Of a stretch of DNA of 64,000 nt, positions 253 to 63,709 are shown one piece after another. The stretch is from Bolinopsis microptera (taxonomy: Eukaryota > Ctenophora > Tentaculata > Lobata > Bolinopsidae): the NCBI RefSeq assembly GCF_026151205.1, contig NC_087082.1:8812901-8876900 (forward strand), given 5' to 3'. The translations under genes and the position numbers were made by a program. The stretch's first letter is position 1. Each line of letters begins with the position of its first letter. The notes beneath the pieces were generated by a model, which searched no databases, had not been told where the DNA came from, and worked only from the letters and a program-made list of their open reading frames with translations.

Positions 253-3200
253 CTACACAGAGTTTAAATCAAAAATAGCTGGCTGTTCATTCTTGTCCAC
301 CGCCGAGAGAGTATGATTACGCAAAAGACTTCGTCCACGATGTTTTTGCTGAGGTGAATTGTCATGGAAAGATCTCGTTCCTCTGAACTTGAATTCTTGT
401 TGGTTTACGAATGGCATTTTTATGCGTGCCCGAGGTACCTGATGGTTACCATGGTTAACATGGTTACCAAGGGACTCATCTTCATCACAAGGGGAAGCTC
501 GACTTGTTTCATGTAATATTTCAAGATCACTATCAGTTGCATGTTCATTCTGTGGTAAATGTGGATCGCTGCTACAACAAGATGGTGATCCAACCTTACT
601 TGATAGAATGTCATTGATTTGAGATCCAATCAGGTTAATACTAGAACCCATTGACAGGGCATCTGTAAAAAATGTATCTTGAACCTTACGAGATGGTTGC
701 TGATTGTCACTAACATTCATTTGATGTTTTCTTGGTGATCTTTGATTATTCGTAATGGGGATCTTGATTTCCAAGTCTTCACAGTGGTATCCATTTTCTT
801 GTGATTGGTGATATTTTTTGGTGCTTGGTGGCACCCGATGGTGATAGTTGCTAGGTGACACCCCAAGGTGATGGTTGGTAGGTGACATCCCACGGTGATG
901 GTTGTTAGGTGACATCTCACGGGTGCTTAGTGACCGTTTGGATGTAACCTCAGGTGATGAAGGTTGTATCAGGGGTGATGTTTTTGAGGAAAAGCTCCGT
1001 GTCTTGTTTTGACAGTATTCTTTGAAGTGGCTGTTGGTTACGATGTATACTATTGGGTTACAGAGGGTGTTTAGCAGAGAGGTTGTACACTGAAAATAGA
1101 ACTGTCAGAGATGACAACAATAACTGCAATCATGCCCAATATACGACCGATGGTCCGATGATACTACTTTCAGCTTCTGCTCTCAGACATGCTTGTTTTC
1201 AGTCAACTTCAAACTGAATTGATGACTGTGGTGATAATAAATAATTGAAATACAAGTAACTGACCTGGACTGTCCATACAGTTGGGTGAATTAAGTGACC
1301 TCCCCCAACCAAGTTACCGTAGATACTTGTAACTACTCCTGGTCCCACCGAGACCATGAACAATCCTGAGAACAGGGAATTGTTTGAGTGGCTGTCACTT
1401 TATAAGTGGAGCTAGACGCAGGTATTATTGAAACATGGTATTCTCAGTCGACAGATCATTTATTTGTTAATTCACTGACATGGTACCAGTGTTTGCCACT
1501 GTAGCACTGAACACAACGTTTCACCCTGAAAAATGGTTCTTACCCACAACCAGAGACACCGTGAGAGGAGCCCTCCAAAAGGGGGTATCTTCACCCCTTC
1601 TCTTGCTGTACTCCTTAGCCTCCCTCAGGATAACCACATAAAGACAAGTCACCACAGAAAGGGGGAACAGAGTATACACACTAGCTACGCCCACTGCTAG
1701 CATCCCGTGTGCACGGCCTTTTGCTGCTGGCGCGTACCTGTGGGTATGTTGAAGAGGGTTACATCAGAACTGTGTTTTCTGGGGTGTATGTCAGGAGTAT
1801 AGTATGTCAGGACCTGGATAAGACTTTCCTGTTATTTTCACTGTTAGGGGTGCATTTTTAATTTTACTGGACATGGAGGTAAGAAGAATTGGTTCAGTAT
1901 TTTGGGAGGAAACGTGGATGCAAATAAACTGGGTTTTGTTAATTTGCACTGCAGTACTCACTCGATACAGCAAGTAAAGATTCTGGGTAGAAAGACACGT
2001 GACTGAAGCCGCCAAGCACCATCAATAGTGGGATCAGACACCACATAGCCAGAATAGTCGTTACATAGGTCGTTCCTCGCACTGATATCAGAAACCTGTT
2101 CAGTGAAGATTATATTAGGAAGACTGAGAGTGGGTTGCGATTGAATAAGATTAAACTTATGGCCTGTTCACTGTTGGGATCCTAGGAGCATATCCAATTA
2201 GTTCCACCGATATCTCATCGTCCTGCAGACAGTGGCGTAACTTTAGTGGCTGATTTAACTTGGCGCCCCCCGGCGGCTCGAAAAAGTCGCCCAAATTTTT
2301 TGTGTCCCTAAAAAAAAAAAAAGAAAAAAGGTCGGGTACCTTTTTTTGGCGCCCCCTACAGCTTTTTTGCGCCCCTGGAGCAAAAAAAGGACCCCAAAAA
2401 TTTTTTTCACACCGACTGAGCGCTAAATTGGACAGGGGAATACACCAATAAGGCGTTATTTTCAGTGAGAGGTCATAAAATTCAAGAAAAATTCAAGAAA
2501 AAACCTAGGGGCGACTTTTCGTTGAGAAAGGGCGCCTTTTTGGCGCCCCCGGCGTAGCCGGGATGGCCGGGGCAGCGTTACGCCACTGCCTGCAGACTCA
2601 AATTATTACTATTACTCTATTAGTATTTCGTTGTAGGTTTATAACCTACCAAGATGCGCGCCGAGTTGGACTCGTCGACGGTCTAATAATTGGAACAAAT
2701 ATTTTAAGAGTTCCACCCGTTAACCATTTCGATGATGATAAAATACAAATATTTTCCAATAAAATGGCTATTGACTTCTGATGGCTATATTCAATTATAC
2801 AACTACCAGTGAACCAGTCACCAGTCACCTACCTAAGAGGAAATATGATATTGTAGAATTTCTGAATAGTAATGAAGGTGACGATCCAAATCTCCATTAA
2901 CATGATCCATGCTTGCATGAGAGCAGTTGAAATACACAGCAGCTCACCCAATACCCACCTTCCTGGAACATACTGAGTTAAAATAATTGCATCTCAATTT
3001 CAACTTCGTCTCTTTTAAGGGCAGGTTAATTTTAAGCTTGGTGCCTCCCAGATACACTTAAATAAAATACAGATTTGTATTTATTAGCGTTATTAGGACC
3101 TCAGAACAGTATTTTGTAAGACAGTTTTAGACGACAGATATTCTGTCATATCAGTCACCATACATTTTTAACAAACATGTTAAACATTTTAATAATATGT

Positions 3201-4108
3201 CTTACTAGTAATAGTGGTGATGAGCATTGGCAAAGTTACAACAGGGTTAATAAGGAGATCATTAATAGCCAGGTAAAGGAGGAACCGTCTTACCGTCCTC
3301 CCTATCCTGCTTATCTTGTGTTGTCTTGTGTAGCAGAGTACCAGTGTGTTGCCTGTGGAGGAGGCGTGGTGAGTGAGGCGTAGTGATGAGGCGTAGTGAG
3401 TGAGGTGTAGTGAGTGAGGCGTGGTGAGGAAGGTGTAGTGATGAGGCGTAGTGAGTGAGGTGTAGTGAGTGAGGCGTGGTGAGGAAGGTGTACTAAGTGA
3501 GGCGTAGTGACGAGGTGTAGTGAGTGAGGCGTAGTGACGAGGTGTAGTGAGGAAGGTGTAGTGACGAGGTGTAGTGAGTGAGGCGTAGTGACGAGGTGTA
3601 GTAAGTGAGGCGTAGTGACGAGGTGTAGTGAGTGAGGCGTAGTGACGAGGTGTAGTGAGGAAGGTGTAGTGACGAGGTGTAGTGAGTGAGGCGTGGTGAG
3701 TGAGGCGTAGTGATGAGGCGTGGTGAGTGAGGCGTAGTGATGAGGCGTAGTGAGTGAGGTGTAGTGAGTGAGGCGTTGAGGATCTTACGTAACTTACTTT
3801 ACGTGGCACGTGCGGTCAAGGTTTTATTGGTGGTGTTTAGGAAGATGAAATAAAAGTTATAGATTCAAGGAATGATGTCCACGAGTGATATAAAGGTTCA
3901 TCGAAATTTAAAGTGTCAAAAAGATTCCACCCGAGCATCGACAGAAATGCACTGTTCCCTCTCCCTCAGTCCCAAACTTACCTACAACAGATAGAATCAA
4001 GGCCACGGACAAGTACGTAGCTACGCCATAACCAGCAATGACTGAAAGAAGGACTGGCCGGTCAAGTGTCTCCTTGAGCAGTAATTCGTGTGCTCTCCTG
4101 TCAGACAT
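253..4108 (-). CDS. Orphan class A-like GPCR (GPCR 1), 7 exons, complete
   Basis: Exons on the minus strand: 4108-3982, 3301-3206, 2962-2833, 2095-1962, 1726-1544, 1365-1265 and 1089-253. Joined they give 535 aa with consistent phase at every junction. The ATG at 4106-4108 leads into a short N-terminus and TM1 (about 19-42). TM2 has LAxxD (53-57). TM3 has the conserved Cys84. TM7 has NPIVY (268-272), followed by a tail of about 260 residues. The tail holds three Ser-Pro-Asn-His-His-like repeats (about 316-342). Oddities: the DRY position reads Gln-Lys-Phe (108-110), TM6 lacks the usual Cys-Trp-x-Pro, and TM1 lacks the usual Asn. These suggest altered G-protein coupling or a divergent receptor (inference). 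The exon 2 acceptor (GATAG) and exon 5 acceptor (1726 or 1737) are the least certain junctions. The ligand cannot be told. It should be a plasma-membrane receptor. Confidence 0.8.
2230..2588. mobile_element. hAT-type MITE (359 bp) inside intron 3 of GPCR 1
   Basis: The ends are perfect 12-bp inverted repeats, CAGTGGCGTAAC at 2230-2241 and its complement at 2577-2588. They are flanked by identical 8-bp direct repeats CCTGCAGA (2222-2229 and 2589-2596). An 8-bp target duplication with CA..TG ends is the signature of hAT transposons. No transposase is encoded, so movement depended on a hAT transposase elsewhere. The interior is rich in GGCGCCCC and A-runs and holds a GC hairpin with triloop GTA near 2548. 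The perfect TIRs and TSD suggest recent insertion. Confidence 0.9.
3363..3776. repeat. Minisatellite in intron 1 of GPCR 1
   Basis: Irregular tandem array built from GAGGCGTAGTGA, GAGGTGTAGTGAGT and GAGGAAGGTGTAGTGA modules, about 410 bp. It lies entirely in intron 1 (3302-3981), starting about 60 bp from the exon 2 acceptor. The reverse strand reads as an open His/Thr/Pro-rich frame only because the modules lack stops in that frame. Confidence 0.9.
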
Positions 4109-6562: not shown

Positions 6563-6912
6563 CGGAACAAACAATTAATTAAAGTATTTACAGGAGCATT
6601 AGTTATTGTAATTACAAGCTTCAATAATAAATCACTGACTAAAACATGACACTTGGTTGTTGGTACGCTCGCCCATTTTCACTGGTCAGTCTAAACTTCA
6701 GTTTAGCACATTGTACACTTATTCACCTAAGTTTCAGAATTTTTTCAGTTTAGCAGAGTTAGTACCCGTGTTTCAATAAAATCAAAAGATATCAGTGGAG
6801 TTCTTTAATAATGTTATGGTCATCTAGAATACCGAACTTCCTGAGTGACTATTCAGAACCGCTCCCACTAAATCGCTCGCCCAAATTTTTAAAAACTTCT
6901 TGTGAAAAGGCC

Positions 6913-7088
6913 TTGTCATACGTTGTATGACCCGCCGCGCACGAAGTGCGCGGCTCCCCCTGTAGCGTCGAAGACGCTACAGTATAGTGAAGCTGCCACT
7001 ATAGTGAAGCTGCCACTATAGTGAAGCTGCCACTATAGTGAAGCTGCCACTATAGTGAAGCGGCAGTGGGGGTCACCGCGTGATACAA
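6913..7088. mobile_element. Triloop-hairpin mini-element, copy 1
   Basis: Starts TTGTCATACG and ends CGTGATACAA. Four hairpins in order, each with a 3-nt loop: H1 6915-6931 (7 bp, loop GTT), H2 6934-6954 (9 bp, loop GAA), H3 6960-6982 (10 bp, loop GAA) and H4 7073-7083 (4 bp, loop CGC). Between H3 and H4 is a 17-bp tandem repeat, TATAGTGAAGCTGCCAC, about 4.5 copies. The left 48 bp is identical in the copies at 11393 and 57468. No coding capacity. Confidence 0.85.
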
Positions 7089-7144
7089 AAAAGGCCCTGA
7101 GGCTATGCATTAATGATTAATGCAATGAAAGTATTTAAAATCGG

Positions 7145-7425
7145 TGTTTTTATGCTGATTCCGAATCACCCCCCATGACACGTAGGGTAAAACTAAAAAT
7201 GCTTCTCTGGAGAATTGTGGGCAAAAAATGTTTTGGTCACGTGACAGGCCAGTTAAACACGAATTCGATTGTTTAGGGCTCGGGTGAGGGTTAGGGTTGT
7301 GGTTAGGGTTGTGGTTAGGGTTTAGTAAGGGTTGGTATTAGGATTTATGTAAAACCGTTTTGTTTGGCTGCAAAACCATAAAAACCAAAGTCACGTGATA
7401 ATGTTTGGGCGAGCAAATTAGTAAG
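7145..7425 (+). repeat. Telomere-motif MITE family, diverged copy
   Basis: Begins near CTGATTCCGAATCACCCCCC and contains TCACGTGA motifs near both ends with a central run of GGTTAGGG variants. Homologous copies lie at about 7790, 8395, 27570 and 54908. GCTCGCCCAAA at about 6875 and TTTGGGCGAGC at about 7408 form an 11-bp inverted pair around this copy and the hairpin element. Confidence 0.65.
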
Positions 7426-8690: not shown

Positions 8691-9551
8691 AGTGTTAGAA
8701 AATTGAAATGTTCGAGTATTGAGTGATTTAGCATATTGCTCGAGGGCTGCAGACGTGACCCGGCCAGAACCACCAAATCAAATTAGCTGATAATAAGATA
8801 AGAATCCTAACTCGCCCCGCTGTTTACTTTTTATAGTGCAAACATGTGAACGTTATGAAGATCTCGAGTATCAACTCTAGAATTGCATTATCGAACCTTA
8901 ATTCATGAATTGGGCACGCCACAAAGAGTCACAATATATAACCTGAACGAGCTGGGTTCATGTTATACAGGGTGATGCAAAAAGAATTTTGGTATTTTAA
9001 ATGTCCATAATTTCTGAGACAAATTAAAAAATCGCTCTATGTACTCCCTGGCGCGTGGGGACACGTTTTTGCTAGTAGTAGTAGTTGGCTACGTTATTTT
9101 ACGGGTATCGAATCTCGCGACTTCAACGAAGTCCTGGGGACAAGTTTTCAATAATCGATAATATTTTCAGCCCCTATCGTTCTAAACATCGTTAGGGCTT
9201 TCCCAGAAACTAACTCTCATCATCCTAGGATAATCGTGTGTCGCACAGCACTTGTTTCAGTAACGATAGTAGTCGCCTTAACGACAGAATGACGTGTACG
9301 TTTCGGTCACCTGTGAAAAAAGTAAGTGAGATATCAAAAATCTGAGAAAAACCCGTTGGATAAAAGCCTTTTAGGTAGGTGCTAGTCAAGATTTCATCTC
9401 TTTAGACCTTAAGATGGCTTCTAATTGATACATGTTTCGGCGGCGCGCGCTTCGCGCGCGAAAAGTGGCATGCAACGTATGTCAAGCTTCTAACACCTCG
9501 TAAAAACTTTTAAAAAGTAAAATTCGCCCGCGACTTACAAAAAGCAACATA

Positions 9552-11200: not shown

Positions 11201-11392
11201 AATCTTAATCTTATAGTTATAGGGATCATTCACAGGGGAAAGCCCGGAAAGAATGTTGAGATAGGCCTTAAAAGATTAAAAGTTATAAGATTTTAACTTG
11301 ATTTTCAAATTGACGACCCTCTAAAAATCATCAAGAATGAAGAAACCAGGTTCAACATCTTCAAACTTTTAAAAAATCTGCCTGCAAAAATC

Positions 11393-11493
11393 TTGTCATA
11401 CGTTGTATGACCCGCCGCGCACGAAGTGCGCGGCTCCCCCTGTATCGTCGTTTCACCTAGTGAAACGACCGTGGGTGTCACAACGTGATACAA
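11393..11493. mobile_element. Triloop-hairpin mini-element, copy 2 (101 bp)
   Basis: H1 and H2 are identical to copy 1. H3 (11447-11469) is a different 10-bp perfect stem, GTCGTTTCAC/GTGAAACGAC, with loop CTA. H4 is TCAC-AAC-GTGA, followed by TACAA. This is the shortest form and probably closest to the basic unit, without tandem repeats between H3 and H4. Confidence 0.85.
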
Positions 11494-11915
11494 CAAAAAT
11501 CAGCCGAATTATGAATCAGGATCAAATGAGAAGCAAGAATGAAGTTCAGAACGTTTACGAATTGATAGCAACTTACATTTCAAAATCATTTTAAAAATCC
11601 CAACATTCTTTTTGCATCACCTGTAAATTATTACAGCTGTAAGTCAGTAATCTGCTGAAGACATTTCAGTAGGCTTAACGTCGTTATGTTGAGACGATTA
11701 AACTATTTCTAGTAGTCGTTCTGTCAATCTTCCTTTTTGATCAGTGCAGAAATTACACATTTACACAGTGCAGAAATTACACTTTTACATTCGTTGCTAA
11801 ATTGTAGCAAGTAGCTCTGATATCGCTTAGCTTATCTCTGTTTAATATCCGACAAGGCTTGTTTAACTACCACAGCCTCACCTTGTAATGGATAGTATTA
11901 AGGTATTAGTACAAA

Positions 11916-43398: not shown

Positions 43399-46300
43399 TC
43401 ACCAGCGCTGATTTTGCACACGTTCAATATAAGAAACTTTGCGTTCCATCTCTTCTAATGTATTCATTGGATATTGTCTCCTTAACACATACTTCTTCAG
43501 TCCTGGAGTAACCTGTGATTTTGAAGTGTAATGCACAATACATGATATGTATATCAATTACGTGAACTGGAGAAGGGTTGAAGTTTTTATCGGTCGATAA
43601 TCATTATCTGATTAGGTTGTTGACAGCTGAAAATTCCCGGAACTACATAATGTAATATGTAATTTAAGTTAGTACTTAGTATAATATCTTACCTTGGTTG
43701 TCAACTGAACAGAATCCTGGATGAAGTTCATTTCTGGGGGTGCATCCTCGAGGAATAATTTCATGTTTCCTTTCTTTCCATGTCTCATGAGCTTCTGCCT
43801 GAAAATATAAATTTGTTGATTTTCAGAAAAACGCATGAAGATAAACTTTCCCCTTACAGACACATTCAAGTCATTGCACACCAAACTCTCTTAATTCAAA
43901 TAAATTGTAGCGAATATGATTGTGATAGCTCACCTAAAATACCAGGCTCGGAGCCTCTTTCTGAACTTAAAACTTGGTGCTGAACCTGTAAAAATATTGA
44001 TTAAATGGAAGATGGTACTCCATAATTTCCCCCTATTTCATTGAGATAACATCCAATCTAATAAGTAATTGGATACATAATATATTGAGGATTGGTATTG
44101 TTTTCTACATATCATGAAACAGATCGTTTGCCCGTCAATTTGAGTGTTTCTCTTTGTTTAAAATATAATGCTCCTGCTTGATTGCAGCAACTAACTAATA
44201 ATTAATATATATTCTATATATCTTTAAAGAACTAGTTTTATCAGTTCTAGCCTTGAAACATCTTGGTTTCTTGGGTATCTTGCACAGTAATGAAATAATA
44301 ATCGTGTGTTTACGAACCGACGGCTTTCTGCATGATTCCAGGCGGCGCAGGGGGAGGAGGAATATTTTCTCCCGCGGAAAGATTATCTTGAGCGACAACG
44401 GGCTCCTCATCGTGTTGTCCCAACTTGAATATCGGAGAATAAGGAGTTTCATAACCAATTGATCTTTTTGGAGTTTCCTCAGACTTTTTACCAGTGAGTT
44501 CTTCCAAAAATTCTAGTTCCGATTTTTCATCATGCCGTTGAAACCTTTTGGGCGATATTCCAGATAAATCTTCGGCAGCAAAGTCTGACTTTTTATTGTC
44601 TGTGATGTCATCCATTGTGATAGGAACGAGTGGTTCAAGACGGGGGAGTTCCTTACTCAGTCTTATATTCTCGGGGGGAGGAGAAGGTTTGTAGGGTGGT
44701 GGAAGCTTTAGGAGATCGTGGTTTGTACGTTGTATAATATTTAAAATGGCTGTACACCAACATGATATGGCATAGTGTAGACACATTACCTGAAAAGACA
44801 AAGATTATACGGCTAACTGAAAATATCTAGTATCTGATAACGAAATTTAAAGTATTTATTGTACTCAAACAAGTATATTGTACACCAGAGAAGTTAAAAG
44901 AAAAAATATCAAGCAAACAGAAATATTACCAACAGTGGGAAACTTACCACAGACGACTTCCCTATGAAATAAGCAAAGATACCTCCAAGTGGTGTTATTA
45001 CCAAGTACAATCTAGGATTATACCATTTCTCATGTCTGAAATTCACCTGAAAGTTGATCAGAGCTTATGAGATTTGCAAATCAACTATTACACACTTTGT
45101 TAATAGAATTATAGATAACCAATTATAGATACTACAAAAAAGTTAATGAGAATGATAATGATATTAATTTTCAAGACATGAATTTCAGTTCAATTAAGTA
45201 GACCTTATGACTAAATGCTTCAAAGTTCAAGAGGCAAGACACTAAAAAGTTTTGTAGTAAGAAAAACCTAAATCATTATTACATGCATGATAGTTCCTAA
45301 AGCGGTGACGATGCAGATGGGGAGACAGTAGAAGCCTACACTTGCATTACTGTTAACTGTCATGTCTAGGAAAGGACCAAATCCTCCATCCAAGAGTGGC
45401 TGAAATAGTGAAACATGTAGTTTATATAACGAATATCATAACGTACAGAGCAAAGGTGCATCAAGCAGCCTGCAGCATACCACTCGATCAAATTATATTT
45501 TTGAATACCCCAAATTTATTAGTTAAATACCAAACAATAATAGCAGCAAATCTGGGGAAACTTGGTGGACATTGACTTTTTTCACACATTTTGAGTATGT
45601 TGACTTCAACATGATATTGCAGCTTATTGTGGTTAATCTCAATGTTGGAGTGATGTTTTTCTGGTGCACAAAACACTGCAGTACAGTTATGTTGAATAAT
45701 TGTGGTTAATGAATCCTCTATGTGGCCACTATGGTGGTTAAAATAGCATGGTTAATAAAGGTCTAAAATTGACCTAAATCAGTGTTTTTGGTCGTTTTAA
45801 CCGCCATACGGCCACACATTCTGTTGCATTATCTTTAAAATCACTAATTATCCTCCAGCTATCTCTCATAATCAAATATAATCAAAACAAAATAAGGCAC
45901 CAAAAGTTCGGAGGTTGCTGAATAATGGTTAATTTGTGATGGCTTCTGTAGACCGAAAGTCCAAAATAAACATGTTTTAACCACATTGAGGCCACATCTA
46001 AGGTTTTATGGTATTGGGACCATAGCCAAAAGTTTTGGGCACCTGGATGGTGTCCTCTGCCTTTGAAATTATGGTGATATTTCAATGCTGTGCCATACCA
46101 GGTGGTTAAGTACGCGCAAGCGCGCGCTTTTAATATATCACAGTTGGTGGTTATGGAGGAGGACTGAGAAGGGGAGGACTTAGGAGGACTGACGAGTGGA
46201 GGAAGAGGAGGATTGAGCAGGAGGAGGACTGAGGAGTAGAAGGAGGAAGAAGACTGAGGAGGATCAGGAGGACCCAGGAAGAGGAGGAAGAGGAGGAGGA

Positions 46301-49300
46301 CTGAGGAGGAGAAGGAGGAACCAAGAGGAGGAACCAGGAAGAAGAGGAGGAGGAGGACTGAGAAGGAGGAGTGAGACTGAGAAGGAGAACTGAGGAGGAG
46401 GAATGAGTAGGAGGAGGAGGAGAAGAAGGACTCAAGAGGAGGACTGAGGAGGAGGAGGACTAAGGAGAAGGATGAGGAGGAGGACCCAAGAGGAGGAGGA
46501 CCCAAGAGGAGGAGGACCCAGGAGGAGGAGGACCCAGGAAAAGGCCCCAAAAGGAGGACTGGGGAGGAGGAGGACCGATGAGGACTGATGAGGACTGATA
46601 AAGAGGACTAAGGACGAGGAGGAGGAGAAGGAGTGAGCAGTGAGGAGGAGGACTGATGAGGAGGAGGTGTATGAGGAGGATGAGGAGGAGAAAGGAGATG
46701 AAGGAAGGAGATGAAGGATGAGGATAAGGAGGACTGAGGAGGAGGACTGGTGAAGAGGACTGATGAGGAGGAGGACTGAGAATGGGAGGACTTAGGAGGA
46801 CTGAGGAGGGGAGGACTTAGGAGGAAGAGGAGGATTGAGGAGGAGGAGGACTGAGGAGTAGAAGGAGAAAGAAGACTGAGGAGGATCAGGAGGACCCAGG
46901 AGGAGGAGGAAGAGGAGGAGGACTGAGGAGGAGGAGGAGGAACCAGGAAGAAGAGGAGAAGGAGGACTGAGAAGGAGGACTGAGAAGGAGAAGGAGGACT
47001 GATGAGGAGGATGAGGATGAGGAGGAGGGTGACTGGGGAAAGGATTGAGGAGGAGGAAGACTGAGGAGGAGGAAGAGAAGAAGGACTGAGGAGGAGAAGG
47101 ACTGAGGAGAAGGAAGAGGAGGATGACCCAGGAGGAGGACCCAGGAGGAGGAGGACACAGGAAAAGGCCCCAGGAGGAGGAGGATGACTTGGGAGGAGGA
47201 GGACTGATGAGGACTGATGAGGAGGAGAAGTAAGTGGATGAAGAGGATGAGGAGGACTGAGGAGGAGGACTGGTGAGCAGAAGGAGGAGGACCCAGGAGG
47301 AGAAGGAGGAGGAGGAGGATAACTGAGGAGGAGGAGAAGGACTGAGGAGGAGAAGAGGGATCCAGGAGGAGAACCCAGGAGGAGGAGGAGGAGGACTGAG
47401 GAGGAGGACTAAGGAGAATGAGGACTGATGAGGAGGATGAGGAGGAGTGTGACTGGGGAAAGGACTGAGAAGGAGGAGGAGAATGCGGACTGAGGAGGAG
47501 GAACCAGGAAAAGGAGGAGGAGGACTGAAGAGGAGGACTGAGAAGGCGAAGGAGGACTGATGAGGAGGATGAGGATGAGGGTGACTGGGGGAGGACTGAG
47601 GAGGAGGGTGACTGGGGGAGGACTAAGGAATATGAGGAAGACTGAGGAGGAGGAGGAAGAGGAGAAGGACTGAGGAGGAGAAGGACTGAGGAGGATGACT
47701 GAGGAGGAGGACTGAGGAGGAGGAGGAGGACTGAGAAGGAGGAGGACTGAGGAGGAGGAGGACTGAGGAGGAGGAGGAGGAGGAGGAGGAGGAGGAGGAG
47801 GAGGAGGAGTGAATAGGAGGAGGAGGGGGACTGGGCAGGACTGAGGAGGAGGACTGAGGAAAAGGATGAGGAGGAGGACTGAGAAGGAGGACTGAGCTGA
47901 GGAGGAGAACTGAGGACTGAGGAGGAAGAGGAGGAGGATGAAGAGGAGGTGGACCCAAGAGGAGGAGGACCCAGGAGGAGGACTCAGGAGGAGGAGGAGG
48001 ATGACTGAGGAAGACTGAGGAGGAGGAGGAAGCATCTAAATATTATTTCCATTTTTGTTATTTTTTGTCCGTTTTTGTCTGTTTTTGTCCGCTCTATTTT
48101 TTGTCCGTTTTGATAATATAGGGTTCCGAACGAAAAAAACGGATAAAAAACAGGATCCCCCTGGAGGAGGAGGAGGAGAAGGATGACTGAGGAGGACTGA
48201 GAAGGAGGAGGACTGAGGAGTACTGAGGAGGATCGCTGAAGAGGATGGCTGAGGAGGATGGCTGAGGAGGATGACTGAGGAGGATGACTGAGAGGGAGGA
48301 GGAGGAGGACTGAGAAGGAGGAGGAGAAAGAGGACCCAGGAGGAGGACTCAGGAGAAAGAGGAGGACTCAGAAGGAGGAATGAGGAGGACTCAGAAGGAG
48401 GAATGAGAAGGAGGAGAACTGAGGAGGAGGAGGAGGAGGACTGAATAGGAGGAGGAGGGGGACTGGGGGAGGACTGAGGAGGAGGAGTACTGACGAAAAG
48501 GATGAGGAGGAGGACTGAGGAGAAGGACTGAGGACTGAGGAGGAAGAGGAGGAGGAGGACCCAGGAGGAGGAGGACTGAGGAGGATGATGAGGACTGCAG
48601 AGGAGGAGGACTGAGGAGGACTGAGGAGGACTGAGGAGGACTGAGGAGGATGGCTGAGGAGGATGGCTGAGGAGGAGGAGGAGGAGAAGGTGGAAGAGGA
48701 GGAGGAGGAGGAGGAGGAGGAGGAGGAGGAGGAGGAGGAGGAGGAGGAGGAGGAAGAGGAGGAGGAAGCATCTAAATGTTATTTCAATTTTTGTTATTTT
48801 TTGTCCGTTTTTGTCCGTTTTTGTCCGTTTTTGTCCGCTTTATTTTTTGTCCGTTTTGAAAATATAGCTGCCAAACGGACAAAAACGGACAAAAAAACAT
48901 GAGCCCCCCCCCTGTAAAATAGTCATTTGAAATAGTCATGCAAAATTTCAGCTCTGATACGCTAAAATATCAAGTTAATCTTAAACAATCGACAATCTAA
49001 TATGAATCCTCCCAATCCTCCCAGCCATATTAACTGGTGAACGGTGTAAATATAGAGCGGTATTTTAAAATGTAGCATTCAAAATTTTATGGATTCAAGT
49101 TGGCTCCTTTAGTCTAGATTCATTTAGAAAATTCTCGAAGTTCGAGTAATACAGTATTCTCAGGGTTTGGCGCTTAAGGAAGCTTCACATCCGAGACCGA
49201 TTTCCACGAATCAATTTAATATTGTAGCTACTAGTCAACAACAGTGCAAGTGGGAAGGAAGTGAATCTAGCCATTGCTACTATATCAGGGGAACTCGTGT

Positions 49301-55661: not shown

Positions 55662-55739
55662 GAGCGCAGTGAAAGCGTGCTGGGCCCATAACCCAGAGGT
55701 CGGTGGATCGAAACCACTTCCTGCTACCACTGTTAAATT
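55662..55739 (+). pseudogene. tRNA-iMet(CAT)-derived pseudogene, 5' acceptor strand lost
   Basis: GCGCAGTGAAAGCGTGC matches the initiator tRNA D arm. The anticodon arm TGGGCCCATAACCCA is intact with anticodon CAT. The T arm (GGTGGATCGAAACCACT) keeps a B-box-like GGATCGAAACC. The 3' end reads CTGCTACCA, with CCA in the DNA. The 5' acceptor strand is replaced by unrelated TTTAAACGA, so it cannot fold as a tRNA. Encoded CCA suggests an origin through a mature tRNA (retroposition or SINE head). Confidence 0.75.
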
Positions 55740-56910: not shown

Positions 56911-57467
56911 TTCCGTTCACCTGAATCCTCTATATTTACATCCTTGTTGTATTTACATGCTAAGGGAATGAGTGTGTGTGAAACAACAATACATAACTAC
57001 TCAGACATGTCTATGAATATAATAACTTAAATATAAAATATGATAACATCATCCCCATCTGTCAAATAAATTTATGTTACATTTTAACAAGTTTGAGATT
57101 TTGATATTTTAATTGTTTTATGTCGGGTTATAAAACAATTTAATTTTTGAATATATCATATTTGCATACGAATAAAAAGTTGTTGTACGATAACTGTAAA
57201 CTTTTTGTTAAATAGTGATAATCATAGCTTTTTGCTCAATGTTATACGATTGGTTTCTATGATAATAAGCAAAATAAACAATATAAATAACTGCCCATTT
57301 TATGAGCATAAGATATAAAAATATATTAAGTTTCATTATGGCTATGTAAATGATGATAATTTGCTCTATCCAGAGCCCTTGCGCAATTGTGAAACAAGCG
57401 CGCCTGCAGTGGCGCGAAAGCACATGGTTAGGTGAAGGTGATAGTGAAGTGGACACTAAATTAATGG

Positions 57468-57577
57468 TTGTCATACGTTGTATGACCCGCCGCGCACGAA
57501 GTGCGCGGCTCCCCCCTGTATCGATCGTCGAAGACGATACAGGGGTGTACTTAATGGGTGTACTTAATGGGTGATAC
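57468..57577. mobile_element. Triloop-hairpin mini-element, copy 3
   Basis: H1 and H2 are identical to copies 1 and 2. H3 is CTGTATCG..GTC-GAA-GACGATACAG, a perfect 10-bp stem interrupted on one side by a 4-nt ATCG/GATC duplication. The right end carries a direct duplication of GTGTACTTAATGGG and ends GGGTGATAC, so H4 is lost. This copy has begun to decay at its right end only. Confidence 0.8.
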
Positions 57578-60340: not shown

Positions 60341-63300
60341 TTAAAATACAAGCTCATTCTTATCGAAGTTTAATTCTGTCCATTCTAATTCTTCGTACCT
60401 GGACTGTATCTTGAGTAGCTCACTTTTCAGTGTTACTTTAACTAAGTTCGTTGACTTAGTAAAGCTTATCATACTGTCAATTTTTCGACAGTCGTTCCAC
60501 ATTTTTGTTGATTGATAAATGAAAGAGGAGGATGGGTTCGGGGTGATGAACTGGTCTGAACGTCTTTGTGATGGTGATCTGTGGAGTAAAGATAGGAGTG
60601 AGATTGGAGATTCTAATCTGACAATTTTGAACAGTTCTAATAGACATGTGTATTTGTACAGGTTGTGGACGGTAAGAAGGCCGTTCTTGTTAAACAACGG
60701 CTTTGTATGCTCTTTTTCAAAGAATTCTCTTCCTAGGATTTGTTCATCTATACAACGTGTTCTGGCACATGTTCTAAATTTATCTAGATATGCTTCAAGG
60801 TCACCAAATAGTATTCTGATACATTTTTTCTGAGTGATGAAGATAGGTTGAAGCATATTATTACTCGACCCACCCCATACCGATATTCCAAATCTTAGGT
60901 GTGACTCAAATAACGTGTGGTACAATTCTTTATGGTGTTTTTTCGGGATAACGTGTCGTATTCTACTGAGTCTTCCGATCTCACACCTAAGTTTCGAGTT
61001 GAGGGCTCTTATTTGAACATCCCATTTTAGCTTTTCGTCAATAATAACACCTAAAAACTTGGTCTCTTTAACTTGCTTTATTACCGTATTATTTAGAGTT
61101 AGTATATATTCTGATTCGTTATCTGCCTCATTATCAGTAGCTGTACGTGACGGATTGAAGTGAATGTAGCAGCATTTCTTTATATTTATATGTAATAGAT
61201 TGCATTTCATGTACTGGTGTAACAAACGGAGAATTTCGTTTGCTCTTGCATACAGTTTTTTTCTACATTCATCTACTACGAATATGTTTGTGTCATCTGC
61301 AAATAGTATGAACTTGCCCAGATCAGTTGTTCTAAATAAGTCGTTAACATATATTATAAATAGCAAGGGTCCGAGACAAGAGCCTTGGGGAACTCCAAAG
61401 AGAACAGGCAGCTTGTCAGACTCTTCGCCCAGTACAGAGACATATTGATATCTATTAGAGAGATAACTAGCGATGAGTCTATTGGCGTTTCCACGTATTC
61501 CATAGTTGTCTAGTTTATTAAGTAGTTTTTCATGTGAGATCGTGTCAAACGCTTTAGATAGATCAATAAATATTCCAAGTACATGCAGTTTTTTGCTAAG
61601 ACAGGATTCTATGTAATTCACTGAGGAGTTGAGGGCATGGCTTGTGGAGTGATTTTTTCTAAATCCGTACTGGTCCTCGTAAATCATTTTCTGGGACTGA
61701 AAGAAGCTATACAGTCTGTTGTAAATAATTTTTTCAAATATCTTACCAAAAACAGCTAAAGTTGATACTGGCCTATAGTTTTCCAGCAATTCCTCATTAT
61801 CCTTCTTATAGATCGGACTGATTCTCCCAGTCTTTAAATCATCTGGGAATACTCCATTCCTCATGCATTCACTGTATAATAAAGATAGTATAGGACAGAT
61901 CACTTTAGACGATTCTTTAACTACATGTATTGGGATGTCGGATGACTTCCCATTCTTCAGTTCAGATATAATCATTCTAACCTCGTCAGCTGTACAGTCA
62001 TTAATGAAAATACTGGACGTGTTTGCTCTAGGCAGGTAGTCATAAAAACTAGGAAGATTGTTAATAGTTAGTTCTCCAATTTCATTATATGCCCCGTTTA
62101 AATTAGACGCTAGAGAAACAAAATACTTATTAAATTCATTGGCTATTACTCTACGATTGGTTATCTTCTCATTGTTTATAGTAAACAGTGGTTTTATTTG
62201 CCGTTTCTGTTTGCCCCGTATTTGATTAATCAGTTCCCATGTCTTCTTACTATTACCGTTTGTGTCTGCAAATTTTCCCATGAAATACTTAGTTTGAACA
62301 TCTTTGCGATCTTTTTTAACCATCCTTCTATAATCCTTATAAGTTTTGTATCTAGAACGTTTTTCACAACATTTCAAGCATTGACATGTTCCACCTTTAT
62401 AATCAGTTTCACCGAGTTTACATTTTGTCTTTCTAACTTTAGCCCAATTGTCATAGAGTTGGTGCTGATGCTTGATTTTGGCTATAAGCCCAGGTGTGAT
62501 CCATGGATTATTTTGTGTAGTTCTTTTGGAGGACTTAGGGGTTGCCAACTTACACGTTTTATCGATACTACTTTTGAAAACATCATGAAATACCGTGAAG
62601 TTGTCAATTACTTTATTCTCTAATTCATGTTCCAAGTCCTTTACAAAAGAGGTAACATTAGACTTACAGTAGTCGTAATATTGTTTATATTTTAGGTTAC
62701 TCTTAGTGGATCCCATACTCTTTTCAAATATTTGAAAGACTGGTGAGTGGTGGGATATACGATCAGTAAGTGTGCCTGAGGCTATTATACTCTCTACATC
62801 GTTAGTTATAATATTGTCAATACACGATACTTTACAACCTGGCTTCTCATGAGTTGGCAGAGATATTAGGGGAAAAAATCCTCTACTGAACAGGACTTCC
62901 TCATAACGTTTTACAATCGCATTATCCTTATTATGTAGATCAATGTTGAAATCACCTGCCAGGTAACTGCATTTCGGCAAATTATCGAGAATTGCTGAGA
63001 GTTCTAATAATGCAACATTTACATCACCACTTGGAGGGCGATACACTACACCAACAGTGACCGGAGTATTCTTGCTGCTTATCGTAACAAATAGAGTTTC
63101 TAGGTTTTCAGATATATGGGACAAATTGCCATTTACTGTAGCACTGAGGGTATCACATACATAAAGAGCGACTCCAGTGCCTTTTCTTTTATCTTGCAAA
63201 GTGTTTTGGTAGAAACTATTGTATCCAGTCAGTTGGTAAAGGTCACTTAATTCGGGGCCTTCATTTGTTTCTGCTAAAGCAATGATCGAAAATTTCATAT

Positions 63301-63709
63301 ATCTCTGTAGTTCTATTGCCAGAGTATCAAAGTTAGATTTATTACCATCGATATTTTGAAATAATAATGATGAGTACTCGTTCATTTGGTTGCAAAATGT
63401 TTTATTAAATTCTTTAACACTATATGGGTTACAGTTATTGAGTAATCGGTTGATGTTTACAAGTGTTTCATCAATGTCAGTACTATTATTTTCAGAGTCA
63501 GTATCTTCATATATAAACGGATTGTAACGAGTACTTGCTAAGTGTACACAGTTAGGGCAGTAAAAATCTTCATATATTTTGTTTGTACTGGATTTAGTAT
63601 AGCATTTATGGTGCATAGCACAGTCACACCTACAACATTCAGCAATGAATTGGCCAATGGAAATGAATTTTGTACAGACAGGGCATACCTCTTTGGTCAA
63701 TTTATTCAT
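60341..63709 (-). CDS. LINE ORF2: PHD finger, APE endonuclease, reverse transcriptase (intact)
   Basis: 1122 codons without a break. It opens with a PHD-like C4HC3 cluster (Cys9, Cys12, Cys25/26, Cys28, His33/34, Cys36, Cys51, Cys54). An APE-type endonuclease follows, with QNIDG, ALAETNE, AGDFN (GDFN 252-255) and SHHSPVF, where the usual SDHxP Asp is His. The reverse transcriptase has YRPVS, YGFRKNHST, the catalytic Asp in KAFD (719-722), GVPQGSCLGPLLF and FADD (803-806). A basic C-terminal domain ends near the stop. It belongs to the CR1/L2/Jockey group of non-LTR elements, most like CR1-type by its ORF1 partner. It copies its RNA into nicked chromosomal DNA. Full coding integrity suggests a young, perhaps active copy. 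The start overlaps ORF1 by ATGA. Confidence 0.97.
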   Translation of the reverse strand: MNKLTKEVCPVCTKFISIGQFIAECCRCDCAMHHKCYTKSSTNKIYEDFYCPNCVHLASTRYNPFIYEDTDSENNSTDIDETLVNINRLLNNCNPYSVKEFNKTFCNQMNEYSSLLFQNIDGNKSNFDTLAIELQRYMKFSIIALAETNEGPELSDLYQLTGYNSFYQNTLQDKRKGTGVALYVCDTLSATVNGNLSHISENLETLFVTISSKNTPVTVGVVYRPPSGDVNVALLELSAILDNLPKCSYLAGDFNIDLHNKDNAIVKRYEEVLFSRGFFPLISLPTHEKPGCKVSCIDNIITNDVESIIASGTLTDRISHHSPVFQIFEKSMGSTKSNLKYKQYYDYCKSNVTSFVKDLEHELENKVIDNFTVFHDVFKSSIDKTCKLATPKSSKRTTQNNPWITPGLIAKIKHQHQLYDNWAKVRKTKCKLGETDYKGGTCQCLKCCEKRSRYKTYKDYRRMVKKDRKDVQTKYFMGKFADTNGNSKKTWELINQIRGKQKRQIKPLFTINNEKITNRRVIANEFNKYFVSLASNLNGAYNEIGELTINNLPSFYDYLPRANTSSIFINDCTADEVRMIISELKNGKSSDIPIHVVKESSKVICPILSLLYSECMRNGVFPDDLKTGRISPIYKKDNEELLENYRPVSTLAVFGKIFEKIIYNRLYSFFQSQKMIYEDQYGFRKNHSTSHALNSSVNYIESCLSKKLHVLGIFIDLSKAFDTISHEKLLNKLDNYGIRGNANRLIASYLSNRYQYVSVLGEESDKLPVLFGVPQGSCLGPLLFIIYVNDLFRTTDLGKFILFADDTNIFVVDECRKKLYARANEILRLLHQYMKCNLLHINIKKCCYIHFNPSRTATDNEADNESEYILTLNNTVIKQVKETKFLGVIIDEKLKWDVQIRALNSKLRCEIGRLSRIRHVIPKKHHKELYHTLFESHLRFGISVWGGSSNNMLQPIFITQKKCIRILFGDLEAYLDKFRTCARTRCIDEQILGREFFEKEHTKPLFNKNGLLTVHNLYKYTCLLELFKIVRLESPISLLSLLHRSPSQRRSDQFITPNPSSSFIYQSTKMWNDCRKIDSMISFTKSTNLVKVTLKSELLKIQSRYEELEWTELNFDKNELVF

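What the first reader, a model, noticed from the sequence alone, without database searches (positions are those of the whole stretch)
6913..7088. Triloop-hairpin mini-elements with compensatory third stem (three copies)
Copies at 6913, 11393 and 57468 share an identical 48-bp left part folding into two hairpins with 3-nt loops, then a third hairpin whose sequence differs between copies while pairing is kept. H3 is TGTAGCGTC/GACGCTACA, GTCGTTTCAC/GTGAAACGAC or CTGTATCGTC/GACGATACAG. The right end is a fourth hairpin, TCAC-NNN-GTGA. H1 (GTCATAC-GTT-GTATGAC) and the inverted H4 (ATCAC-GTTGTG) share TTGT and ACGTTGT, like terminal repeats that are themselves hairpins. Sequence change with pairing kept implies that structure is selected. 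This could be a single-strand DNA mobile unit recognised through hairpins, or a structured RNA. I know of no named family with this layout.
Basis: partly seen in the sequence, partly recalled or inferred. Interest (0 to 1): 0.8.

Follow-up and report, generated by a model that had tools for sequence, protein, structure and literature searches.

The report
Short remnants of giant transposons
The three small hairpin elements look like collapsed leftovers of jumping DNA about 10 kb or longer: the same two ends survive, but in nearly every copy examined they are stitched together at a different point, as if each was repaired separately after the middle was lost.

Summary
The three elements are real. 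They belong to a DNA-transposon family with 8-bp target-site duplications in an unnamed 264.65-Mb animal-type genome (980 copies of 78-108 bp with exact ends). The "third hairpin kept by compensatory change" is mostly not that. In 143 two-ended sampled copies, 138 sequences are distinct. Each is a left arm (H1, H2, part or all of H3) joined to a right arm at its own junction, with microhomology or templated filler; in 99 clean cases left arms are at most 74 nt (one exception, 82) and right arms at most 42. 37 of 143 keep the complete H3 core; one of its nine pairs covaries, between parental lineages. The arms are the ends of large elements found here: 13 pairs of ends 9.6-26 kb apart, 10 of them (9.6-18.5 kb) with 7-9 bp direct duplications. 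Best reading: a large element leaves, gap repair copies only its hairpin ends, and error-prone end joining seals the site. Separate formation and the arm limits are well supported; that it happens at the donor site, and that hairpins cause the stop, are inferred. No transposase was found, so the superfamily is open.

The parts
6905..6912 (.). left target-site duplication of copy 1 (8 bp)
   Evidence: identical to 7089-7096
6913..7088 (+). copy 1, short derivative, 176 bp
   Evidence: exact ends; the next-ranked match is 83% identical (40 of 1397 candidates scored)
6913..6982 (+). left arm of copy 1 (H1, H2, H3), identical to large-element left ends nt 1-70
   Evidence: 100% to E10, E11a, E12, E1b
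6983..7046 (+). junction filler of copy 1, part of a 17-bp tandem array resembling the right arm
   Evidence: 64-nt insertion; period 17, 4.6 copies
7047..7088 (+). right arm of copy 1 (42 nt)
   Evidence: as in large-element right ends
7089..7096 (.). right target-site duplication of copy 1
11385..11392 (.). left target-site duplication of copy 2 (8 bp)
11393..11493 (+). copy 2, short derivative, 101 bp; left arm nt 1-59, 2-nt filler, right arm 40 nt
   Evidence: its last 58 bp have one match in the genome at up to 3 mismatches, itself
11494..11501 (.). right target-site duplication of copy 2
57460..57467 (.). left flank 8-mer ATTAATGG of copy 3
57468..57545 (+). copy 3, left arm only (H1, H2, complete H3 with a 4-nt insertion), no right arm
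   Evidence: 91% to E10 nt 1-73
57546..57570 (+). junction of copy 3: tandem TGTACTTAATGG, whose last 7 bases repeat the left flank; read as repair filler plus the surviving right duplication
   Evidence: sequence; inference
9407..9485 (-). weak, degenerate relative (H1-like plus a GC hairpin)
   Evidence: nhmmer E = 8e-4

Best explanation
They are short deletion derivatives of a family of very large DNA transposons (9.6-18.5 kb for those with duplications, up to 26 kb for all paired ends; 8-bp target-site duplications; TTGT...ACAA ends carrying hairpins). SHOWN in the sample: the short copies consist of the two ends of the large elements; nearly every copy is closed at its own junction, with end-joining signatures; left arms do not run past 74 nt (where hairpin H3 ends; one exception) nor right arms past 42 nt; left and right arms mostly come from the same lineage. 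INFERRED: a transposase cuts out a large element; at the empty donor site repair synthesis copies the element ends back from the sister chromatid; the new strands leave the template soon after the terminal hairpins are made; the short ends are then joined by microhomology-mediated, polymerase-theta-like end joining. The large element moves on and leaves a ~100-bp unit that still has both ends and the duplication. Copy 3 would be a one-sided product.
For: 980 copies of 78-108 bp with exact ends; 102 of 143 sampled copies with exact 8-bp duplications, 3 with 9 bp, 23 with 1-2 mismatches, 15 with none; six clean paralogous empty sites of ten shown. Large elements with the same ends: 27 of the 39 matches carry the parental GGGGGTCATAG beyond the left limit, 19 right ends with at most one mismatch run past the right limit; 13 pairs, 10 with duplications of 7-9 bp. 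138 of 143 short sequences distinct. Of 99 clean junctions 98 have left arms of at most 74 nt and 99 right arms of at most 42 nt. Of 45 junctions without insertion 35 show at least 2 bp of microhomology, against a mean of 6 and a maximum of 16 in 2000 random-join sets. All 39 insertions of 6 nt or more are distinct, with longer copied stretches than shuffles (9.2 v 5.2). One junction occurs on three arm haplotypes, so it formed more than once. The full 74+42 form has 4 matches at up to 3 mismatches genome-wide. H3 is complete at nt 74 in lineage B and 73 in lineage A. Drosophila P-element excision gives the same kind of product, partial synthesis then end joining (passages of PMC2895639).
Against: No site was seen with a large element on one haplotype and a short one on another. 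All 69 left ends with the exact 47-bp left part that one search lists on C1:1-21.53 Mb were examined: 2 large, 67 two-ended short, 0 one-sided, so one-sided products are rare and copy 3 carries that argument almost alone; its GTGATAC at 57571-57577 could also be read as a trace of the right end. The right hairpin is weak (z -2.7 in lineage B, -0.3 in lineage A), so a hairpin stop on the right is not well supported. The breakpoint ranges have a floor set by my filter (left at least 40, right at least 28), and 44 of 143 copies were dropped from the junction statistics. Some identical copies exist (for example three) and could be clonal. Lineage C left arms are found with two or three right types. 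No large parent was found for the C and D lineages, and no transposase at all. Three of 13 paired large elements, among them the two longest, lack duplications.
Confidence: 0.55

Rival explanations
1. Ordinary MITE plus centre revision: a short element of about 116 bp (74+42) spread by cut and paste, and the palindromic centre of each copy was later broken and rejoined, by cruciform cleavage or by gap repair after its own excision.
For: Explains the sharp arm limits without a hairpin stop; H3 lies at the centre; small groups of identical copies exist (for example three).
Against: The unrevised 74+42 form is almost absent: 4 matches at up to 3 mismatches, for the CACTATAG type of right arm; the nearest sampled copy, L104, has 2 extra nt. 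Lineages A and B reach similar left limits (72, apart from L141 at 82, and 74; B' 70, D 71). Left and right lineages are mostly linked (30 of 30 A; 60 of 63 B, B' and D). The same junction lies on several arm haplotypes.
Confidence: 0.25
2. Loss in transit: the excised large element loses its unprotected interior while the transposase holds about 74 and 42 bp of the ends; the ends are joined and the short form inserts at a new site.
For: Two-sided sharp limits look like a protein footprint; one junction per insertion; duplications in most copies.
Against: Does not readily produce a one-sided remnant such as copy 3 with a 7-bp repeat of the flank; free ends would have to be joined before integration.
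Confidence: 0.15
3. Single-strand DNA element or structured RNA recognised through hairpins.
For: Strong hairpins in the left end; one compensated H3 pair between lineages.
Against: 8-bp duplications and empty sites; no Rfam match there at gathering thresholds; H3 core incomplete in 45 of 82 copies of lineages A, B and B'.
Confidence: 0.03

Closest known systems
MITEs as internal-deletion derivatives of DNA transposons (general; recalled)
   Same: about 100 bp, non-coding, ends of a larger transposon, high copy number, target-site duplication
   Different: ordinary MITE families are amplified copies of one or a few deletions (recalled); here 138 of 143 sampled copies are distinct
Abortive gap repair: Ds from Ac (recalled) and P-element excision products (PMC2895639, passages read)
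   Same: partial copying of the ends followed by microhomology and templated-insertion end joining
   Different: in the passages seen, copying ends by low processivity, not at a fixed point; here the limits are 74 and 42 nt in 98 and 99 of 99 clean junctions and coincide with a strong hairpin on the left only
CMITE of Acropora corals (PMC2872659, parts 1-2 of 4 read)
   Same: about 100-bp MITEs of a marine animal with an unusual internal region
   Different: TTAA duplications, piggyBac-type ends, conserved interior; here 8 bp, TTGT ends, variable junction
Zisupton / KDZ transposons
   Same: 8-bp duplications (PMC12730594, passages); about 11 kb and subterminal inverted repeats (recalled)
   Different: KDZ domain not found in this genome (whose control was silent); no coding signal in the three pairs of large elements compared
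Foldback templated insertions at breaks (PMC11724301, abstract)
   Same: short inverted duplications made by foldback, like the palindrome at the junction of copy 2
   Different: yeast break repair, not a transposon family

Membership tests
MITE (short non-autonomous DNA transposon) | target-site duplication of fixed length | tested here: met
   exact 8 bp in 102 of 143 copies, 3 more with 9 bp
MITE (short non-autonomous DNA transposon) | ends shared with a larger element | tested here: met
MITE (short non-autonomous DNA transposon) | family homogeneous in sequence, amplified as the short form | tested here: not met
   138 distinct of 143; 39 of 39 junctions with insertions of 6 nt or more distinct
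MITE (short non-autonomous DNA transposon) | terminal inverted repeats | tested here: inconclusive
   TTGT...ACAA plus an imperfect match of about 20 bp by eye; blastn of the left against the right 1.5 kb of six large elements lists none at E 0.01
hAT superfamily | 8-bp duplication | tested here: met
hAT superfamily | hAT transposase within an element of this family | tested here: not met
   150 hAT dimer matches (150 of 366 candidates scored), none inside the 13 paired large elements by coordinates
hAT superfamily | terminal YARNG-type motif (recalled) | tested here: not met
   ends are TTGTC...TACAA
KDZ / Zisupton | KDZ transposase domain PF18758 | tested here: inconclusive
   no match in the genome, but the control was silent
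P superfamily | P-type transposase PF21787 | tested here: inconclusive
   no match, control silent
MULE | MULE transposase PF10551 in the element | tested here: not met
   88 matches, none inside the 13 paired large elements by coordinates
IS200/IS605-like single-strand elements | insertion without target-site duplication (recalled) | tested here: not met
   8-bp duplications
Helitron | no target-site duplication, 3' hairpin before CTRR (recalled) | tested here: not met
   8-bp duplications, ends TTGT/ACAA
structured RNA family of Rfam | match above the gathering score | tested here: not met
   the only match in the window is a tRNA at 55663

The most novel reading that the evidence does not exclude
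The short elements are not self-spreading MITEs but excision scars: each marks a place where a transposon of about 10 kb or more once sat. The hairpins in the ends act as built-in terminators of gap repair, so that the host rebuilds only the two ends. MITE number then grows each time the large element leaves, without the short form ever moving.
Probability: 0.4. Interest if true: 0.82.

Novelty: new variant of a known kind. Interest (0 to 1): 0.6.

Why it matters
How MITEs arise and multiply is an open question. A family in which nearly every sampled copy carries its own repair junction, with large elements bearing the same ends still present, separates 'formed once and amplified' from 'formed again and again'. 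It also offers hundreds of natural repair outcomes with fixed limits, so the idea that terminal hairpins decide how far gap repair copies a transposon becomes directly testable.

Tried and rejected
Covariation as evidence for a selected structure: rejected (1 of 9 H3 core pairs). Coding or transposase content of the large elements: the ORFs, judged by eye, look like reverse-transcriptase and Penelope-like fragments plus repeats; a codon-phase scan of three pairs of elements gave one weak window. Superfamily by domain search: KDZ, hAT, P and MULE, none inside the 13 paired large elements. A right-hand palindrome mirroring H3: a 34-place pattern gave 22 matches over both strands, several being one site read both ways; I followed none of them up. 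Flanks of large elements against flanks of short copies, to catch a converted site: no convincing pair in what was shown (output cut, nested copies in the flanks dominate). Literature: in seven searches none of the papers listed has a title or abstract start describing this family or this unique-junction pattern; only the top 14-30 of 14-121 papers per search were listed, and apart from those cited and PMC9297572 (passages on Zisupton) I opened none. Organism not identified.

Full report
What is there. Copy 1 is 6913-7088 with AAAAGGCC on both sides, copy 2 is 11393-11493 with CAAAAATC on both sides. Copy 3 begins at 57468 and has the left arm only. The exact H1 17-mer occurs three times on the + strand; with up to 3 mismatches there are 7 matches on both strands against 0.18 expected.

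The family. A pattern of the exact left 19 bases, a gap of 50-80 and the exact right 9 bases has 980 matches and none in the reversed control. The 47-bp left part with at most one mismatch has 955. Listings are cut to about the first hundred places. I fetched the places that one search lists (all on C1), those that one search lists on C1 up to 21.53 Mb and one search had missed, and 11 further loci, ten of them hits. In these loci, in the left ends of large elements fetched later (L123-L142) and in the window, 143 copies of 76-196 bp have both ends (exact right 9-mer required), 138 of them distinct. The sample is biased towards intact ends.

Insertion. Of the 143, 102 have an exact 8-bp duplication, 3 a 9-bp one, 23 differ by 1-2 bases and 15 show none. 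Joining the flanks and searching the fetched loci and the window found paralogous empty sites; I inspected ten. In six (L030, L066, L095, L115, L137 and the + copy of L110) the alignment runs through a single, identical copy of the 8-mer; L015 and the - copy of L110 have a one-base gap beside or in it; L039 and L045 differ in it.

The large elements. Copies L100 and L105 run past H3 into shared sequence. The pattern GACGCTACAGGGGGTCATAG has 39 matches at up to 3 mismatches, 12 exact; 27 of the 39 end in GGGGGTCATAG, and a group on C9 ending in GATTAAAG is unrelated, judging by the one fetched (L142). The right-arm extension GATGACACCCACTATAGTGAAGC has 22 matches, 19 with at most one mismatch. 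Pairing left and right ends by coordinates gives 13 elements: eight have 8-bp duplications, one 7 bp, one 9 bp and three none; those with duplications are 9.6-18.5 kb, and the two longest (about 22 and 26 kb) have none. Six further right ends that I fetched had no partner (L162-L167). The large elements fall into groups: E10, E12, E11a and E2 are about 90-99% alike over long stretches; E7 and E1b are 88-93% alike; the two groups share only about 0.2-0.8 kb at the left end and a few hundred bases at the right. L146, L147 and L122 form a third group, L122 and L147 being 99.5% identical over 9.8 kb. Of the 22 loci L121-L142, L142 is unrelated, L134, L137 and L141 are small derivatives (about 359, 196 and 121 bp) that run past the left limit, and for L122/L147, L135, L136/L146, L138 and L139 no right end was found. 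I saw nothing between 0.36 and 9.6 kb, but did not search for that range as such.

The junction. I matched each short copy to left and right arm references; 99 of 143 matched well enough (left at least 40, right at least 28) and 44 were dropped, mostly with altered arms. Left breakpoints lie at 40-74 with one at 82 (L141); right ones at 29-42 with none beyond; for right arms of the CACCATAG type the reference beyond 42 is a guess. By lineage the left maxima are 74 (B), 72 apart from L141 (A), 70 (B'), 71 (D) and 70 (C). Of 45 junctions without insertion, 35 have an overlap of at least 2 bp; random joins of the same arms gave 6 on average and never more than 16 in 2000 sets. 54 have insertions; the 39 of 6 nt or more are all different and contain longer copied stretches than shuffled ones (mean 9.2 v 5.2; at least 6 nt in 77% v 36%). 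Copy 1 has a 64-nt filler within a 17-bp tandem array; the next-ranked match is 83% identical, with 40 of 1397 candidates scored. Copy 2 has a foldback-like palindrome, and its last 58 bp match only themselves in the genome at up to 3 mismatches. The same simple junction appears on different arm haplotypes (GCTACA/CTATA on three), so it arose repeatedly, while three identical copies of another junction could be clonal. Arm lineages are mostly linked: A with A in 30 of 30; B, B' or D with B in 60 of 63 (one A-type right arm on a B left arm, L091, and two others); lineage C is mixed (7 B-type, 6 C-type, 1 A-type, 1 other), and 35 copies could not be assigned.

Structure. The left arm folds as DNA into H1, H2 and H3, and H3 is complete at nt 74 in lineage B and 73 in lineage A. 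The right hairpin is weak, and not better than shuffles in lineage A. Across the 143 copies 37 keep both sides of the 9-bp H3 core, all in lineages A, B and B' (37 of 82); the 26 copies of C and D have a different stem that this count does not cover, and none of the 35 unassigned keeps the core. One core pair covaries (G-C/T-A) and one is broken (G/A) in 11 copies. In the central region 59% of the copies have an unbroken stem of 6 or more and 39% one of 8 or more, and the mean folding energy is lower than for shuffles. So H3 pairing is a property of the large elements that the derivatives often lose, though not always.

Mechanism. Excision followed by incomplete copying of the ends and end joining accounts for both ends being present, for duplications, unique junctions, microhomology, templated filler and lineage linkage. 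Drosophila P-element work describes such products and the role of polymerase theta (passages of PMC2895639). The sharp limits need an extra cause. The end of H3 fits the left limit well; a bound transposase footprint is the alternative and fits the right limit better. Copy 3, a left arm joined to a repeat of the flanking TTAATGG, looks like a one-sided donor-site product, but it is a single case, and none of the 69 exact left ends that one search lists on C1:1-21.53 Mb is one-sided: 2 are large and 67 two-ended (my count; it includes L007, L103 and L106, whose right ends carry mutations). The rival that a 116-bp MITE spread and was revised later is weakened because its expected unrevised form has only 4 matches at up to 3 mismatches.

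What I could not settle: the transposase and superfamily (searches found none inside the paired large elements; the controls were silent), the organism, and direct conversion of a large allele to a short one.

Noticed in passing
window 9407-9485 (-): Weak, possibly older relative: an H1-like palindrome followed by a GC-rich hairpin of different sequence.
   Followed up: partly
window 46155-48766: Long GGA-rich degenerate arrays; the large element in L143 (5637-7962) holds a similar-looking TCC-rich array, but blastn with low-complexity masking shows no match.
   Followed up: partly
window 7260-7330: Degenerate telomere-like GGGTTAGGGTT repeats close to copy 1.
   Followed up: no
window 60341-63709 (-): 1122-aa ORF with a reverse transcriptase domain and a weak, sub-threshold endonuclease match: probably a LINE with a long open frame.
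   Followed up: no
L065, 157-375: Two short copies head to head with a single shared 8-bp duplication between them, as in double insertions of other transposons (recalled).
   Followed up: no
L014, 1943-2145: A short copy inserted into the left end of another short copy, with the 8-mer GTATGACC on both sides.
   Followed up: no
L121, positions 784-3709 counted on its reverse complement: Several spaced units encoding a nearly identical 64-aa open frame inside a large element.
   Followed up: no
L159 / L160 (contig C101): A large element lying inside a reverse short copy without a duplication, with part of the target missing.
   Followed up: partly
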